Assembly: GCF_027594145.1 (NCBI RefSeq)
Contig: NZ_JAQFFK010000001.1
Coordinates: 310,001-374,000, forward strand
Direction of reading: 5' to 3'
DNA length: 64,000 bases
From: Methanococcoides alaskense
GTDB taxonomy: Archaea; Halobacteriota; Methanosarcinia; Methanosarcinales; Methanosarcinaceae
Positions 32,614 through 44,063 of the stretch are shown here, in pieces; the stretch's first letter is position 1, and each line of letters starts with the position of its first letter. Both the position numbers and the translations under genes were made by a program. The notes under the pieces were generated by a model. It was not told the origin of the DNA and searched no databases. It saw nothing but the letters and a program-made list of their open reading frames with translations.

Positions 32614-34221
32614 ATGAATGGAATAGAAAATGTTCTGAGTAATTTATCTGCCGAAGAATCTTATAATATTCCAGCTGAATCGTTTAAAAATCATGGGGTC
32701 TTAAATTCTATTTTTGAGAATCTTCCTCTTATTCTGATCCTTATCAATAAGAAGGGCAGAGTTGAAAACATCAATCAAGCTACTTCCATTACATTAGGAA
32801 AGGAAAAAACGGATAGTATTGGTCTTCTTGGTGGTGAATTATTTGGATGCATGAATTCGTTGAAAGATGAAGGATGTGGGAAAAACAGAGAATGCTCAGA
32901 ATGTACTGTGCGAAACTCTGTAATGTACACTTTTGAGACAGGTGAGAACATTTACAAAAAGGAAGGTGAATTGGAAATAATTACCAATGGCCGGTCTGTA
33001 ACACTTCATCTTTTAATTTCAACGCTCCTGATAAAACAAAACAATGAACCAATGGTTTTGCTCACTGCTGATGATATTACAGAACAGAAGCTTGCTGAAA
33101 AGGCACTAAAAGAAAGCGAGATCAAGTATAAGGAGTTGGCTGATTCCTTGCCCCAAACGGTTTTTGAAACTGATTTACAAGGAAATATCATATTCGTCAA
33201 CCGTTATGCATTTGAAATGTTTGGTTACACGCAGGAAGACTTTTCCAAAGAATCAAATATTTATCAGACGCTAATTTCTGATGATCTGGGCAGGGCTAAA
33301 CTGAATCTAGAGAAGGTCGTGTGTGGAGATGATCAAGGGTCTAGCGAATACACAGCTCTGAGAAAAGATGGCAGTACATTTCCTGTCAGCATATATTCAA
33401 ACAGAATTTTTCATAATGATAGAACAATAGGCATTAGAGGAATACTCGTAGACATCACTGAACGCAAGCAAGCAGAAAAAGCAATGTTCCATGCAAAACT
33501 TATGGCAGAAACTGCTAACCGTACCAAATCTGAATTCCTCGCAAACATGAGTCATGAGCTACGCACGCCTCTTAATTCTATCATCGGCTTCTCACAGTTG
33601 CTAAATAGCAATCCTTCCGGTAATCTGAATGAAAAGGAAACTAAATATTCATACAATATTATGGATAGTGGTAAACACTTGTTGGACCTTATCAATGACA
33701 TTCTTGAGATCTCAAAGATCGAAAGTGGGAAAATAGAACTTGAATGTGAAAAGTTTAGTTTATCTTCCTTCCTTTGTGATGTGGAGAATATAATTAAACA
33801 TATGGCATATACTAAGAACATTGAAATTTGTAATCAGTTTCGTTCTAAAAGTATTGAAGTGTATGCTGATAGATTAAGGATGAAACAAATATTGTATAAT
33901 CTACTAAGTAATTCCTTGAAGTTCACACCTGAAAATGGTTGCATATAGATAAATGCTGTCAATTGCGATAATATGTTGGAGATATCTATATCGGATAATG
34001 GTATTGGTATTCCCGAAAATAAACACGATGAAATATTTGATACATTCAAACAGGTGGATTCTTCGATTGCCAGAAGTTATGGTGGCACTGGTCTTGGTCT
34101 TGCAATTGTCAAGAAATTTGTTGAAATGCATGGTGGCGAGATCTGGGTCGAAAGTGAAGTTGGAAAGGGAAGTACGTTCACATTTTCAATTCCAATGAAT
34201 TCTGAAAATACATCTTTTTAA
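32614..34221 (+). CDS. sensor histidine kinase with in-frame TAG (possible pyrrolysine)
   Basis: 535 codons with TAG at codon 445 (33946-33948). Before it: PAS (25-155, cysteine-rich CGKNRECSEC insert), PAS (165-290), H-box MSHELRTPLN (His near 314) and N-box LLSNSLKF. After it, in the same frame: G1 SDNGIGI, G2 [10 protein letters not shown] and the HGGEIWVESEVGKG end, stopping at TAA 34219. The paralogue at 29396 has lysine (AAG) at the TAG position, one base away. Without read-through the product loses both ATP-binding G boxes and would be dead. Pyrrolysine insertion is the likely rescue in a methylotrophic methanogen; recent pseudogenisation is the alternative. Confidence 0.8.
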
Positions 34222-38653: not shown

Positions 38654-39523
38654 TTATAACTCTTCTCCCAGCCATTCGTTTACCTTTTCAGGATTATTCT
38701 CTATCCATTTTGCTGCTGCATCCTCAGGAGCCATTCCATTCTCCATATCACTCATCACTGACTGTATATCTTCATGGGTCCAGTGGAATCTTGTGAGTAC
38801 ATCATAGACCTCTGGCATATCTTCTTCAAGGCCTATACGGGCAAGGGTCTCTACATTATCTGCTTGACCAAAGGCTCCTTCTGGATCATCAAGGTACTTC
38901 AAGTCCCAGCGATCAAATGACCAATGTGGTGACCAGAGTGTAACAACGATGGGTTCTTCATCATCAATAGCTTTTCGAAGCTGTGCGTTCATGCCTGCGG
39001 TACTGCTTGAGACCAGTTTGTAATCCAGACCATAGGCTTCGATAGCATTTTCGGTGTTCTGCATGATACCTGCCCCAGGGTCGATACCGATGATCTCTCC
39101 GTCAAACATTTCCTTGTTGTCGTTGAGTTCTGCTATAGAGTCTATCTCTACATATGCTGGTACAACAAGTCCCAGAGGTGTGTTCTCAAGGTTTTTTCTG
39201 ACACTGACTAACTGGTCTCCATACTGATTCCAGTAGTTTTCCTGTGTCACGGGTAACCATGCGGATGTTGTGAAATCGAAATCTCCCTGTGCGACTCCCA
39301 GATAAAGGGCGCCTGCATCCACTGCAATGATCTCAACATCATAGCCCTTTTTCTCAAGAACCTGCTCGATCACATTCGTGCTTGCTATTTCGCCGTCCCA
39401 TAGAACATATCCTACAGTTACTTCCTTTGATTCAGTTCCATCTTCCTGCTGGACACATCCTGCACCAACAAGGCTTATTGCAATTAGCAATACCAGCAAT
39501 AACGATTTTATTTTTCCATTCAT
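38654..39523 (-). CDS. proX: glycine betaine/proline-betaine binding lipoprotein
   Basis: 289 residues with lipobox (LVGAGC, C23), so attached to the outer face of the membrane. The fold is the OpuAC/ProX class: VGYVLWDGEIASTNVIEQVL at the start, then DFTTSAWLPVTQENYW, PAYVEIDSIAEL and LWSPHWSFDRWDLKYLDDPE, supplying the tryptophan cage that binds quaternary amines. Last gene of the proV-proW-proX operon, 78 bases after proW. Its role is uptake of betaine as compatible solute or, in some methylotrophic methanogens, as a methyl source. Confidence 0.92.
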   Translation of the reverse strand: MNGKIKSLLLVLLIAISLVGAGCVQQEDGTESKEVTVGYVLWDGEIASTNVIEQVLEKKGYDVEIIAVDAGALYLGVAQGDFDFTTSAWLPVTQENYWNQYGDQLVSVRKNLENTPLGLVVPAYVEIDSIAELNDNKEMFDGEIIGIDPGAGIMQNTENAIEAYGLDYKLVSSSTAGMNAQLRKAIDDEEPIVVTLWSPHWSFDRWDLKYLDDPEGAFGQADNVETLARIGLEEDMPEVYDVLTRFHWTHEDIQSVMSDMENGMAPEDAAAKWIENNPEKVNEWLGEEL

Positions 39524-39601: not shown

Positions 39602-40432
39602 TCATTTTGGTGTGAGATGCTGCGTGAACCTGTCAAGTATGATCGCAATGATCACAATTCCAAGTCCTGCTTCAAATCCCTGGCCTATATCTACTCTCTG
39701 AATTCCGATGAGTACCTGATATCCCAGACCTCTTGCACCGATCATGGCAGCTATTACAACCATTGAAAGGGAAAGCATTATGCACTGATTTACACCGGCC
39801 ATTATGCTTGGCAGAGCAGTTGGAAGTTCCACCTTGGTCAGTTTCTGCCAGGGTGTTGATCCAAATGCGTCTGCGACCTCAGTAAGTTCCTTAGGCACCT
39901 GCTGAATTCCCAGGGTGGTAAGTCTGATCGCAGGAGGCATTGCAAAAACAATCGTTGCAACAAGTCCCGGAACATTTCCAAGCCCAAAGAATATGACTGC
40001 AGGTATAAGGTAGACAAACGATGGCATCGTCTGCATCAGGTCAAGCAGCGGTTTGATCACGTGGTATGCAAATTCATTCTTTGCTGAAACGATTCCCAAT
40101 GGTATTGCGATAAGCAATGCAAGGGATGCCGATGTGAGTACAAGGGATATAGTCTCCATGGATAGTACCCATAGTCCCATGTTCTCTATCAGGAGCAAGC
40201 CAAATGTACTTCCTATCGCAAGTTTTAGATCCTTCTTGCCGATGAAATATGCAGCGATACCAATTATCAATGCAAATACAATGGGAGGAAATAAGAGCAG
40301 GGTATCATTAAGGCCGGATATTATGTAATCCGTTACATCGCTAAATATATCCAGCAATATTCCAAAATCATCTTCGATCCAATTGACCACTTTTTCCATA
40401 CCCTCGCCTATCGGTATTTTTGGTATAGCCAT
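39602..40432 (-). CDS. proW: betaine ABC transporter permease
   Basis: 276 residues with about six to seven helices of the ProW/OpuAB type. The EAA loop is VADAFGSTPWQKLTKVELP near residues 186-205, before the helix LPSIMAGVNQCIMLSLSMVV. LLDLMQTMPSFVYLIPAVIFF and NVPGLVATIVFAMPPAIR are the usual core helices. It begins 3 bases after the ATPase stop, so translation is coupled. Works with the ATPase at 40436 and the binding lipoprotein at 38654. Confidence 0.93.
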   Translation of the reverse strand: MAIPKIPIGEGMEKVVNWIEDDFGILLDIFSDVTDYIISGLNDTLLLFPPIVFALIIGIAAYFIGKKDLKLAIGSTFGLLLIENMGLWVLSMETISLVLTSASLALLIAIPLGIVSAKNEFAYHVIKPLLDLMQTMPSFVYLIPAVIFFGLGNVPGLVATIVFAMPPAIRLTTLGIQQVPKELTEVADAFGSTPWQKLTKVELPTALPSIMAGVNQCIMLSLSMVVIAAMIGARGLGYQVLIGIQRVDIGQGFEAGLGIVIIAIILDRFTQHLTPK

Positions 40433-40435
40433 TGA

Positions 40436-41644
40436 TCACACCTCCTCGATCGTAAGTGCACCAAGTACACTTCCCCTTACAATTACTCCAAGGAGTTTTC
40501 CATCATCCTTTGTAACTGCAATAGGTGAACTGTTTTCTATTATCGGTATAAGTTCGTTCAAAGGTGTATCTGGGTTAGTAGCTGTGACATCGCTTGTCAT
40601 GACGTCCTTTATGGTCTTCCCAGCCTTTGAACCACTCACTGCATCATCAACTGAAACTATGCCTTTCAGATGCTTCTCTCTGTTCACGACAAATATGGAT
40701 GATATGCCATGTTCTCTCATCAACTGCAGGGCTACCTTTGGACTGGAGTTAATTGATATCACGGGATCGGCACGTTTCATGACCGTTTCTGCAGTGAGTA
40801 TTTTTGTCCTGTCCACGCCTGCCACGAACTTCGATACATAATCATCTGCAGGTTCTGTAAGGATATTTTCTGCAGTGCCGATCTGGGCTATCTGGCCATC
40901 ATGCATGATCATGATCCTATCGCCCAGTTTTAGGGCCTCATCGAGATCATGGGATACGAAAACGATCGTTTTCTGCATCTTCTCTTCCAGTGCGAGCAAT
41001 TCGTCCTGCATCTCGCTTCGTATAAGGGGATCAAGAGCACTGAAGGCTTCATCCATCAGCAGGATGTCAGGATCAGTTGCAAGGGCCCTCGCAAGTCCGA
41101 CCCTCTGCTGCATCCCTCCACTGAGCTGGGATGTTTTGCTATCTTCATAGCCCTTAAGGCCAACTGTCTCGATAGCTTCCTTTCCTTTAACATCTCTTTC
41201 TTCTTTTGATATGCCCTGTATCTCAAGACCGTATGCAACGTTATCAAGGACAGTTCTGTGAGGAATGAGTGCAAAATTCTGAAAGACCATGCCCATTTTT
41301 TTCCTGCGTATCTCTCGCAGTTTTTCAGAATCTGCTGTGGCCACATCCTCACCATCGAGAATTATGTTTCCGGCAGTTGGTTCTATAAGGCGGTTTATAC
41401 ATCGCAAAAGAGTGGATTTTCCTGAGCCGGAAAGGCCCATTATTACAAAAATCTCACCTTCATATATATCAAAATTGACGTTATAAAGTCCAACGTTCTG
41501 TCCGGTCCTTTCAAAAATTTCACTTTTTGATAATCCGGTTTCGATAAGAGAAAGTGCTTTCTTGGGTTTTTTCCCAAATATTTTAGTTAGGTTTCGTACT
41601 TCAATTTTTTTTTCCTACTTAATATTAAAATCTCCAGTTAACAT
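40436..41644 (-). CDS. proV: betaine ABC transporter ATPase with CBS domains, in-frame TAG at codon 10
   Basis: 402 codons from ATG 41644. Codon 10 is TAG (41615-41617). Codons 11-68 read EKKIEVRNLTKIFGKKPKKA to YEGEIFVI, the normal N-terminus of ProV/OpuAA, so this part belongs to the gene although it contains no ATG, GTG or TTG. Then Walker A GLSGSGKST (70-78), signature LSGGMQQRVGLARAL, Walker B ILLMDEAFSALD and two CBS domains (about 275-400) that sense ionic strength in relatives. The first ATG after the TAG is at Walker A, which would give a useless protein. UAG read-through (pyrrolysine) or a non-standard ATT start at 41605 are the options. Confidence 0.85.
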
Positions 41645-41890
41645 TGGATACTAGCCCAACGCTGGGTAAAACAGATTTTAGGTTTAAATTAGAGTAGCTC
41701 TAATCAGTGAAACCATGTGTTATAGTATTTGTGGCTTAAATTTGGTTGGATATTTTTAATAGAATCTGATAGATAGTGAACAAATACATTTATAATCCGT
41801 GATAAATAGAGGTCTGATCATTTCATCTGAGATTCCATTGTCATGCAGTAAGAGTTGTTTTCCTACTGTAGACAATGGTTGTATTACTGA

Positions 41891-42941: not shown

Positions 42942-44063
42942 ATGAATATGGATAGAACCATCAAACTCAAGCTGGAGATGCCGAATGAAGGCAAAGAAAA
43001 TCTCAAGCAGACAGTTGTACTTTTCAACCACGTTTTCAACGAGGTTGCGTCGTATGGTTTTAATAATCATACACATAGCAAGGTATCTATCCATCACGCT
43101 ACTTACAAAGACATTAGAGAACTGCACCCTGAACTCCCGTCTTCGCTGGTACAAGGTGCTCGTGATGTTGCGTGTGAAGCTCTCAAAGGTGTTAAGCTTA
43201 AGAGGCTTCCACAAAGTCATCTTTTTTCTGCAATCAGATACAACAAGAGAGTTATCCGTATTGTTTTCGAACATGGGTATGCTACAGTTGCATCGGTCAA
43301 TGGCAGAGTTAAGGTTTGTTTTACAATCCCCAAATACTATGAACAGTATCTCGGATGGGAAATTCGAAGTTCTGCTCTGAATTATGATAGCAGAAACGAT
43401 TTGTTCTATCTGCATGTAACACTTCGAGCAGAATCTCCTAAACCATCTGGTAATACTGTTCTTGGTATTGATCGAGGAATTGTTAATGTCGCAGTTTGTT
43501 CCAATAATGTCTTTTTCAATGACAGCGGGGTCAAGAATACAAGAGCTAAATATGCATATCTGAGGAAGGAAATTCAGTCCAAAGGCACCAAATCTGCTAA
43601 ACGTCTTCTTAAGAAGATCAGCGGAAGGGAAAGACGGTTTGTGACTGATGTTAACCATCATATTGCCAAAGAAATTGTCAATATGCCCTTTGATGTGTTT
43701 GCTCTTGAAGATCTTACAAGTATCAGAGTCCAGAAACGCAGAGGAAAGAACTTTAACAGGAAACTCAACAATTGGAGTTTCTACCAACTTGAACAGTTTA
43801 TCCGCTATAAAGCGGAAGCTCTGGGCAAGTAGGTTGTCTCGGTTGATCCCAGATTCTCTAGTCAGAAGTGTTCCAAATGTGGACACACTTACAAAGGGAA
43901 TCGGGATGGTAGTTCTTACCGTTGTCGTAGTTGTGGATTCCAGATACATGCTGACCTCAATGCTGCTCGAAACATAGCTCAGGCGGGTATATCCTGCCTG
44001 AGTAGGCTGTCTGTCAATCAGCCGAATGTAGGGATGAGTGCTGTACAGGGTACAGCGCAGTGA
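42942..44063 (+). CDS. tnpB: TnpB RNA-guided nuclease, in-frame TAG
   Basis: 373 codons from ATG 42942. The RuvC catalytic residues are seen in LGIDRGIVNVAV (Asp), ALEDLTSIR (Glu) and IHADLNAARNI (Asp), and the zinc ribbon in CSKCGHTYKGN and CRSCGF. TAG at codon 297 (43830-43832) sits in LGK-TAG-VVSVDPRFSSQ, where TnpB proteins usually have Arg or Lys. The zinc ribbon and third catalytic Asp lie after the TAG and stay in frame to TGA 44061. So the nuclease is complete only if the UAG is read, as pyrrolysine in a suitable host. Otherwise it is a pseudogene. Confidence 0.85.

What the first reader, a model, noticed from the sequence alone, without database searches (positions are those of the whole stretch)
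41600..41644. ProV start region needs TAG read-through (codon 10) or an ATT start
The conserved ProV N-terminus (codons 11-68) has no ATG, GTG or TTG. The only ATG in frame upstream is 41644, with TAG as codon 10, preceded by AAG. If UAG is read as pyrrolysine the gene is complete; this would make UAG decoding a condition for betaine uptake and could link osmoprotection to pyrrolysine (methylamine) status.
Basis: partly seen in the sequence, partly recalled or inferred. Interest (0 to 1): 0.66.

Follow-up and report, generated by a model that had tools for sequence, protein, structure and literature searches.

The report
Conserved AUU start plus UAG codon
In many methylotrophic methanogens the betaine-uptake ATPase gene appears to start at AUU instead of AUG, and in three Methanococcoides species its third codon is the stop codon UAG, probably read as pyrrolysine, so two unusual translation steps may be needed to make one transporter part.

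Summary
In ProV (minus strand) ATG 41644 is followed by in-frame TAG at codon 10, and the next canonical start is ATG 41440.

Comparison of 68 family orthologues points to both. A Shine-Dalgarno (GGAG, 41635-41632) lies exactly 8 nt upstream of ATT 41623. At that register five genera have AUU, AUC or AUA (40 of 41 genomes), and the other genera mostly have GTG, ATG or TTG. ATG 41644 is not the start: it is followed by TAA in two congeners.

Translation therefore most likely begins at AUU 41623 and meets UAG as codon 3 (AUU AAG UAG GAA). This UAG occurs in three Methanococcoides species; two others have CAG and TCG there. The downstream gene is under purifying selection (dN/dS about 0.09). The genome has pylT, S, B, C and D, rarely ends genes with TAG, and has other in-frame TAGs, two in this window. 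Pyrrolysine here looks tolerated, not required, so the methylamine-osmoprotection link is lineage-specific at most.

The new part is the conserved AUU start in an archaeon. Everything is comparative; no protein or ribosome data were available. In passing I found a strong candidate +1 frameshift in leuA of the same organisms.

The parts
40436..41623 (-). proV (betaine/proline/choline ABC transporter ATPase with CBS domains), proposed CDS from AUU 41623 to TGA
   Evidence: TIGR01186 454.7 bits (cut-off 326.6); ABC_tran and CBS in Pfam; closest solved chain 7ahc_D
41632..41635 (-). Shine-Dalgarno GGAG, 8 nt before AUU 41623
   Evidence: Invariant TGGAGATT in 11 Methanococcoides species; spacing 8 is also the commonest value in this genome's genes (81 of 258)
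41621..41623 (-). Proposed AUU start codon
   Evidence: AUU/AUC/AUA at the same register in 40 of 41 genomes of five genera; NUG at the aligned place in most genomes of the other genera
41615..41617 (-). In-frame UAG (codon 3 from AUU 41623, codon 10 from ATG 41644)
   Evidence: TAG in G000, G008, G005; CAG in G009; TCG in G002
41605..41613 (-). Nine-A run after the UAG
   Evidence: Same length in five congeners
41642..41644 (-).
   Evidence: Followed by TAA in G007 and G010
41603..41605 (-). Rival AUU start downstream of UAG, with a weak AGGA (41616-41613) upstream
   Evidence: Read; this codon varies ATT/ATA/ATC/TTA in the AUH genera (column 0)
41720..41730 (-). Candidate TATA-like box AAATACTATAA
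   Evidence: Best conserved upstream block in the genus alignment; function inferred
39602..40432 (-). proW-type permease, ATG start 3 nt after the proV stop
38654..39523 (-). proX-type substrate-binding protein
33946..33948 (+). In-frame TAG inside a sensor histidine kinase; HATPase_c (residues 420-530) spans it at residue 446
43830..43832 (+). In-frame TAG inside a TnpB/OrfB transposase; domain PF07282 (residues 280-345) spans it at residue 297

Best explanation
Translation of proV begins at AUU 41623, placed by the Shine-Dalgarno 8 nt upstream, with initiator Met-tRNA (the residue is inferred). AUU, AUC or AUA starts are the rule for this gene in a clade of methylotrophic Methanosarcinaceae. 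In Methanococcoides G000, G008 and G005 the third codon is UAG, which tRNA-Pyl reads as sense, giving (M)-K-Pyl-E-K-K-I-E-V and then the ATPase. Shown here by sequence: the lack of a canonical start, the fixed SD-to-AUH spacing, its conservation, the pyl genes, and purifying selection downstream. Inferred: actual AUU initiation, pyrrolysine insertion, and any effect on transporter level.
For: SD at register 8 from AUH: run of at least 4 matched bases in 34 of 40 AUH genomes (3 in the other 6) against 3.0% of 1246 internal AUH codons of the same genes. At the aligned position other genera have GTG, ATG or TTG. In 27 genomes no canonical start lies between the in-frame stop and the core; in most of genus g4 that stop (TGA) lies 4 codons before the AUU. 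The codon's third base (ATT 33, ATC 6, ATA 1) differs from conserved Ile columns of the same genes (ATA 184, ATC 122, ATT 118). The AUH genomes form one clade of the ProV tree with two canonical genera nested in it. No out-of-frame canonical start with an SD overlaps the site in a conserved way. For UAG: dN/dS 0.087-0.101 between TAG-bearing species and G009; pylS, pylB, pylC, pylD ORFs and tRNA-Pyl (CUA) on one locus; TAG ends only 17 of 392 long coding-like frames in 464 kb, and at least five of those 17 are internal to a gene (both mtmB, a HyuB-like gene, histidine kinase, TnpB).
Against: No N-terminal peptide, ribosome profiling or toeprint was available. G085 has an ATG at register 5 beside the AUU. 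G066 and G030 have an in-frame ATG 3 codons before the core, and G030 and G092 have broken proV frames. G096 is out of frame because of a longer A run. The genomes are related, so their counts are not independent events. An AGGA precedes AUU 41605 at register 6 in the TAG- and CAG-bearing species.
Confidence: 0.76

Rival explanations
1. Initiation at AUU 41605, downstream of the UAG, so that no read-through is needed. AUU 41623 AAG UAG would then be a dead two-codon frame, or a re-initiation device.
For: AGGA (41616-41613) stands at register 6 of this AUU in the species with TAG or CAG. The resulting protein would lack only a few residues before the first core strand, compared with OpuA 7ahc.
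Against: The codon varies ATT/ATA/ATC/TTA in the AUH genera and behaves as a core isoleucine codon. AGGA is absent in G002 and in the other congeners. The upstream SD-AUU block is unchanged in the TAG species, and register 6 is uncommon in this genome (17 of 258).
Confidence: 0.12
2. Start at ATG 41644 with UAG as codon 10.
For: It is in frame and shared by nine of eleven congeners as ATG TTA.
Against: TAA follows this ATG in G007 and G010; no SD stands before it; the conserved SD lies inside the reading; other genera have no equivalent ATG.
Confidence: 0.03
3. proV is a pseudogene or not expressed in the TAG-bearing species.
For: UAG early in the frame and no canonical start before Walker A.
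Against: dN/dS about 0.09, intact frame, SD and promoter block conserved, intact proW and proX.
Confidence: 0.04
4. A frameshift from an out-of-frame start through the A run produces ProV.
For: A long A run follows the start; G096 has two more A than its close relative G080; leuA in the same genomes seems to use a +1 shift.
Against: No conserved out-of-frame start with an SD overlaps the proV frame in the AUH genomes, and the A run is interrupted in most of them.
Confidence: 0.03

Closest known systems
Bacterial infC (IF3) and pcnB, genes with AUU starts (from my own knowledge)
   Same: AUU near-cognate start with an SD, conserved across species
   Different: Here an archaeal ABC-transporter ATPase; no evidence of feedback through an initiation factor. 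A 2021 review of archaeal recoding says non-canonical events were demonstrated in archaea only in elongation and termination (PMC8211752).
Pyrrolysine acquired by neutral evolution, Methanosarcina tRNA-His guanylyltransferase (Heinemann 2009; known here from citations in PMC3639795)
   Same: UAG at a non-catalytic, replaceable position of an ordinary gene in a Pyl-decoding archaeon
   Different: UAG is at codon 3, where relatives have CAG or TCG, and follows a non-canonical start
Methylamine methyltransferases mtmB, mtbB, mttB
   Same: In-frame UAG in a Pyl-decoding genome (mtmB of this genome)
   Different: There Pyl is the conserved active-site residue; here the position is variable
OpuA of Lactococcus (7ahc) and ProV/Ota glycine betaine transporters
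   Same: ATPase fold, CBS domains, operon with permease and binding protein
   Different: Start codon AUU, plus UAG at codon 3 in three species

Membership tests
ProV/OpuAA betaine transporter ATPase | Above the curated family cut-off | tested here: met
   TIGR01186 454.7 bits against 326.6; below the stricter equivalog cut-offs NF007480 and TIGR03415
ProV/OpuAA betaine transporter ATPase | ABC domain plus C-terminal CBS domains, operon with permease and binding protein | tested here: met
ProV/OpuAA betaine transporter ATPase | Betaine uptake activity | not testable with these tools
   No transport data
Gene with AUU (near-cognate) start | No canonical start serving the conserved N-terminus | tested here: met
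   27 genomes without any canonical start before the core
Gene with AUU (near-cognate) start | SD at initiation spacing from the near-cognate codon | tested here: met
   Register 8; 34 of 40 with run of at least 4, against 3.0% of internal AUH codons
Gene with AUU (near-cognate) start | Initiation at AUU measured | not testable with these tools
   Needs proteomics, toeprinting or ribosome profiling
infC-type autoregulated AUU start | Product, or a factor it controls, discriminates against AUU | not tested
   ProV is not an initiation factor; no claim made
Pyrrolysine-decoded gene | Complete pyl cassette in the genome | tested here: met
   pylS above cut-off; pylB, pylC, pylD ORFs next to it (named from sequence and order); tRNA-Pyl CUA
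Pyrrolysine-decoded gene | In-frame TAG with conserved, selected frame downstream | tested here: met
   dN/dS about 0.09
Pyrrolysine-decoded gene | Pyl conserved as a functional residue | tested here: not met
   CAG and TCG in G009 and G002, other codons elsewhere
Pyrrolysine-decoded gene | Pyl found in the protein | not testable with these tools
   Needs mass spectrometry

The most novel reading that the evidence does not exclude
The AUU start is a regulatory device: AUH has been kept and AUG avoided for this gene in a whole clade because near-cognate initiation makes ProV synthesis depend on the stringency of start selection (for example on ionic strength or an initiation factor), so that betaine uptake answers to osmotic state at translation initiation. 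In three species pyrrolysine supply adds a second gate at codon 3.
Probability: 0.2. Interest if true: 0.78.

Novelty: new variant of a known kind. Interest (0 to 1): 0.56.

Why it matters
If true, archaea have a gene whose AUU-type start codon has been kept across five genera, a case I did not find in the searchable literature. It would make near-cognate initiation in archaea testable in culturable organisms, and would mean that gene finders limited to ATG, GTG and TTG mis-start or drop this ATPase in dozens of genomes. The UAG at codon 3 gives a clean case of a UAG with sense meaning in a gene unrelated to methylamine catabolism, at a codon where relatives carry CAG or TCG.

Tried and rejected
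Start at ATG 41644: rejected (TAA follows it in two congeners). Hidden sequencing error in the A run: rejected (same run in five assemblies). Frameshift from another frame: no conserved out-of-frame start with an SD. Known structured RNA near the start: no Rfam match up to E 0.1. ATH codon as an ordinary internal isoleucine codon: third-base use and SD spacing differ from internal ATH codons; the third-base result is modest because only 11 comparison columns exist. Two early family-accession guesses were the wrong families and say nothing. The whole genome was not available as a file, so genome-wide TAG and start statistics come from 464 kb of sampled stretches. Transcription-start data of Methanolobus psychrophilus (PMC5378194) and M. 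mazei Ribo-seq (PMC11456600) do not mention this start in the main text. Literature on all-TAG pyrrolysine codes was not in the held library.

Full report
WHAT IS THERE. The window lies in a Methanococcoides genome (G000; near relatives are named). The minus-strand operon 41623-38654 encodes a ProV-type ATPase, a ProW-type permease and a ProX-type binding protein. Around the 5' end the minus strand reads: ATG(41644) TTA ACT GGA GAT TTT AAT ATT(41623) AAG TAG(41617) GAA AAA AAA ATT(41605) GAA GTA CGA.

WHERE TRANSLATION STARTS. I collected ProV orthologues from the family (69 of 112 genomes) and read the start regions of 68. A Shine-Dalgarno is present in most, and at a fixed register the codon is GTG, ATG or TTG in genera g2, g5, g6, g7 and g11. 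In genera g1 (Methanococcoides), g4, g8, g13 and g14 it is ATT (33), ATC (6) or ATA (1). The SD-to-codon spacing of 8 nt is also the commonest spacing among genes sampled from this genome (81 of 258). In 27 of these genomes the frame between the last in-frame stop and the conserved core has no canonical start at all; in 24 of them the next canonical codon lies at least 8 codons inside the core (counted by hand). In most of g4 the in-frame stop is a TGA four codons before the ATT, which leaves little room for any other start.

CONTROLS. Internal ATH codons of the same genes have an SD run of at least 4 at that register in 3.0% of 1246 cases, against 34 of 40 proposed starts. The third base differs from conserved isoleucine columns of the same genes. 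ProW in the same loci always has a canonical start, and so do 77 of 80 ProV loci from the genome-collection search. A scan for out-of-frame starts that could feed a frameshift found nothing conserved. On a ProV tree the ATH genomes lie in one clade (96/82 support) with two canonical genera, g5 and g6, nested inside. One gain with two losses and separate gains are both possible.

ATG 41644 IS NOT THE START. It is followed by TAA in G007 and G010 and has no SD of its own; the conserved SD lies inside that reading.

THE UAG. From AUU 41623 the frame is AUU AAG UAG GAA. The codon is TAG in G000, G008 and G005, CAG in G009 and TCG in G002. CAG and TCG are each one step from TAG but two from each other, so TAG may be ancestral in this group and replaced twice; that is inference, and G002's start region groups with the TAG species although its protein does not, so recombination may be involved. 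dN/dS between TAG-bearing species is about 0.09, like that between TAG and CAG species, so the downstream gene is maintained. The genome has pylS over its cut-off, adjacent pylB, pylC and pylD ORFs (named from sequence and order) and tRNA-Pyl with anticodon CUA. In 464 kb TAG ends 17 of 392 long coding-like frames; several of the 17 are internal: both mtmB genes, a HyuB-like gene (L163), a histidine kinase at window 33946 and a TnpB at window 43830. UAG is thus rare and often sense here.

MECHANISM. Most likely the 30S subunit is placed by GGAG and initiates on AUU by third-position mismatch pairing with the initiator tRNA, then tRNA-Pyl reads UAG at codon 3 in competition with termination. 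Initiation and insertion are inferred. Since the UAG position accepts Gln or Ser in relatives, pyrrolysine is tolerated, not needed for function. In the three TAG species full-length ProV would nevertheless require tRNA-Pyl charging.

MAIN REMAINING DOUBT. AUU 41605, after the UAG, has an AGGA at register 6 in the TAG and CAG species. If it is used, no read-through is needed. I give this 12%: the codon varies as a core isoleucine codon and the upstream SD-AUU block is fully retained.

NOVELTY. AUU starts are known in bacteria (infC, pcnB; own knowledge). A 2021 review states that non-canonical events in archaea were demonstrated only in elongation and termination (PMC8211752), and M. mazei Ribo-seq reports ATG, TTG, GTG and some CTG starts for small ORFs (PMC11456600). 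I found no report of a conserved AUU start in archaea, but only open-licence papers were searchable. UAG in non-catalytic positions is known (PMC3639795). Hence 'new variant of a known kind'.

IN PASSING. The survey for other genes without a canonical start turned up leuA (2-isopropylmalate synthase). Its frame has an in-frame stop and no canonical start for about 48 codons in G000, but a short frame starting at ATG encodes M...(L/R)RDRFL..* and overlaps it one base out of register. Reading AGG GAU CGN UUU, slipping +1 on UUUU at the UUA leucine codon, and continuing UAC gives one protein, e.g. MDTNTQLRDRF^YVDEPIRNRKISIFDTTLRDGEQTP. RGGGATCGNTTTTTAC occurs almost always once per genome in 97 of 238 genomes of the class, confined to two families, while the reversed control pattern almost never occurs. 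In the second family the leader has its own strong SD (GGAGG). CGN varies only at its third base, as expected if the leader frame is the translated one. By analogy with bacterial prfB (SD-like element before the shift site; own knowledge), a leucine-sensing +1 frameshift is the obvious hypothesis. It lies outside the window and deserves its own study.

Noticed in passing
L170:4306-4321 and L170:4307-5824 (+), G000:C3; same motif in 97 genomes: Candidate conserved +1 programmed frameshift in leuA: leader frame M...(L/R)RDRFL..* overlaps a leuA frame without canonical start; shift site CGN UUU UUA C with SD-like AGGG upstream and a UUA leucine codon in the A site. Confined to two families of the order; in the second family the leader has a strong GGAGG SD. 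May sense leucine.
   Followed up: partly
L168:1141-2172 (-), G000:C1:291141-292172: MtaA (methylcobamide:CoM methyltransferase) seems to start at CTG with an SD at spacing 8 in four Methanococcoides species; the other congeners have TTG at the same place.
   Followed up: partly
L241-L243, paralogue of leuA (e.g. G000:C1:422601-424061): Also has an in-frame TGA then GGG ATT GCA TTA TTT and no obvious canonical start; AUU start or a shift at AUU UGA are both possible.
   Followed up: no
window 33946-33948 (+): In-frame TAG inside the HATPase domain of a PAS sensor histidine kinase, read through in frame.
   Followed up: partly
window 43830-43832 (+): In-frame TAG in a TnpB/OrfB transposase within its PF07282 domain.
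   Followed up: partly
L163 (minus strand, offset 17280), G000:C1: In-frame TAG in a long gene resembling hydantoinase B, with 765 and 463 codons on either side.
   Followed up: no
L161:8705-9817 (-): pylB ends with TAG, followed by 42 more open codons and overlapping the start of pylC; UAG could affect its own biosynthesis operon.
   Followed up: no
G096 proV (L185) against G080 (L188): Two extra A in the A run after the AUU put G096 out of frame; slippage or sequencing error.
   Followed up: no
G126 proV (L198): Another in-frame TAG about 14 codons into the core of a g7 ProV.
   Followed up: no
G005, contig of 2,575,032 bases: The length fits, from memory, Methanococcoides burtonii DSM 6242; if so, a cultured TAG-bearing species is at hand for proteomics.
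   Followed up: no
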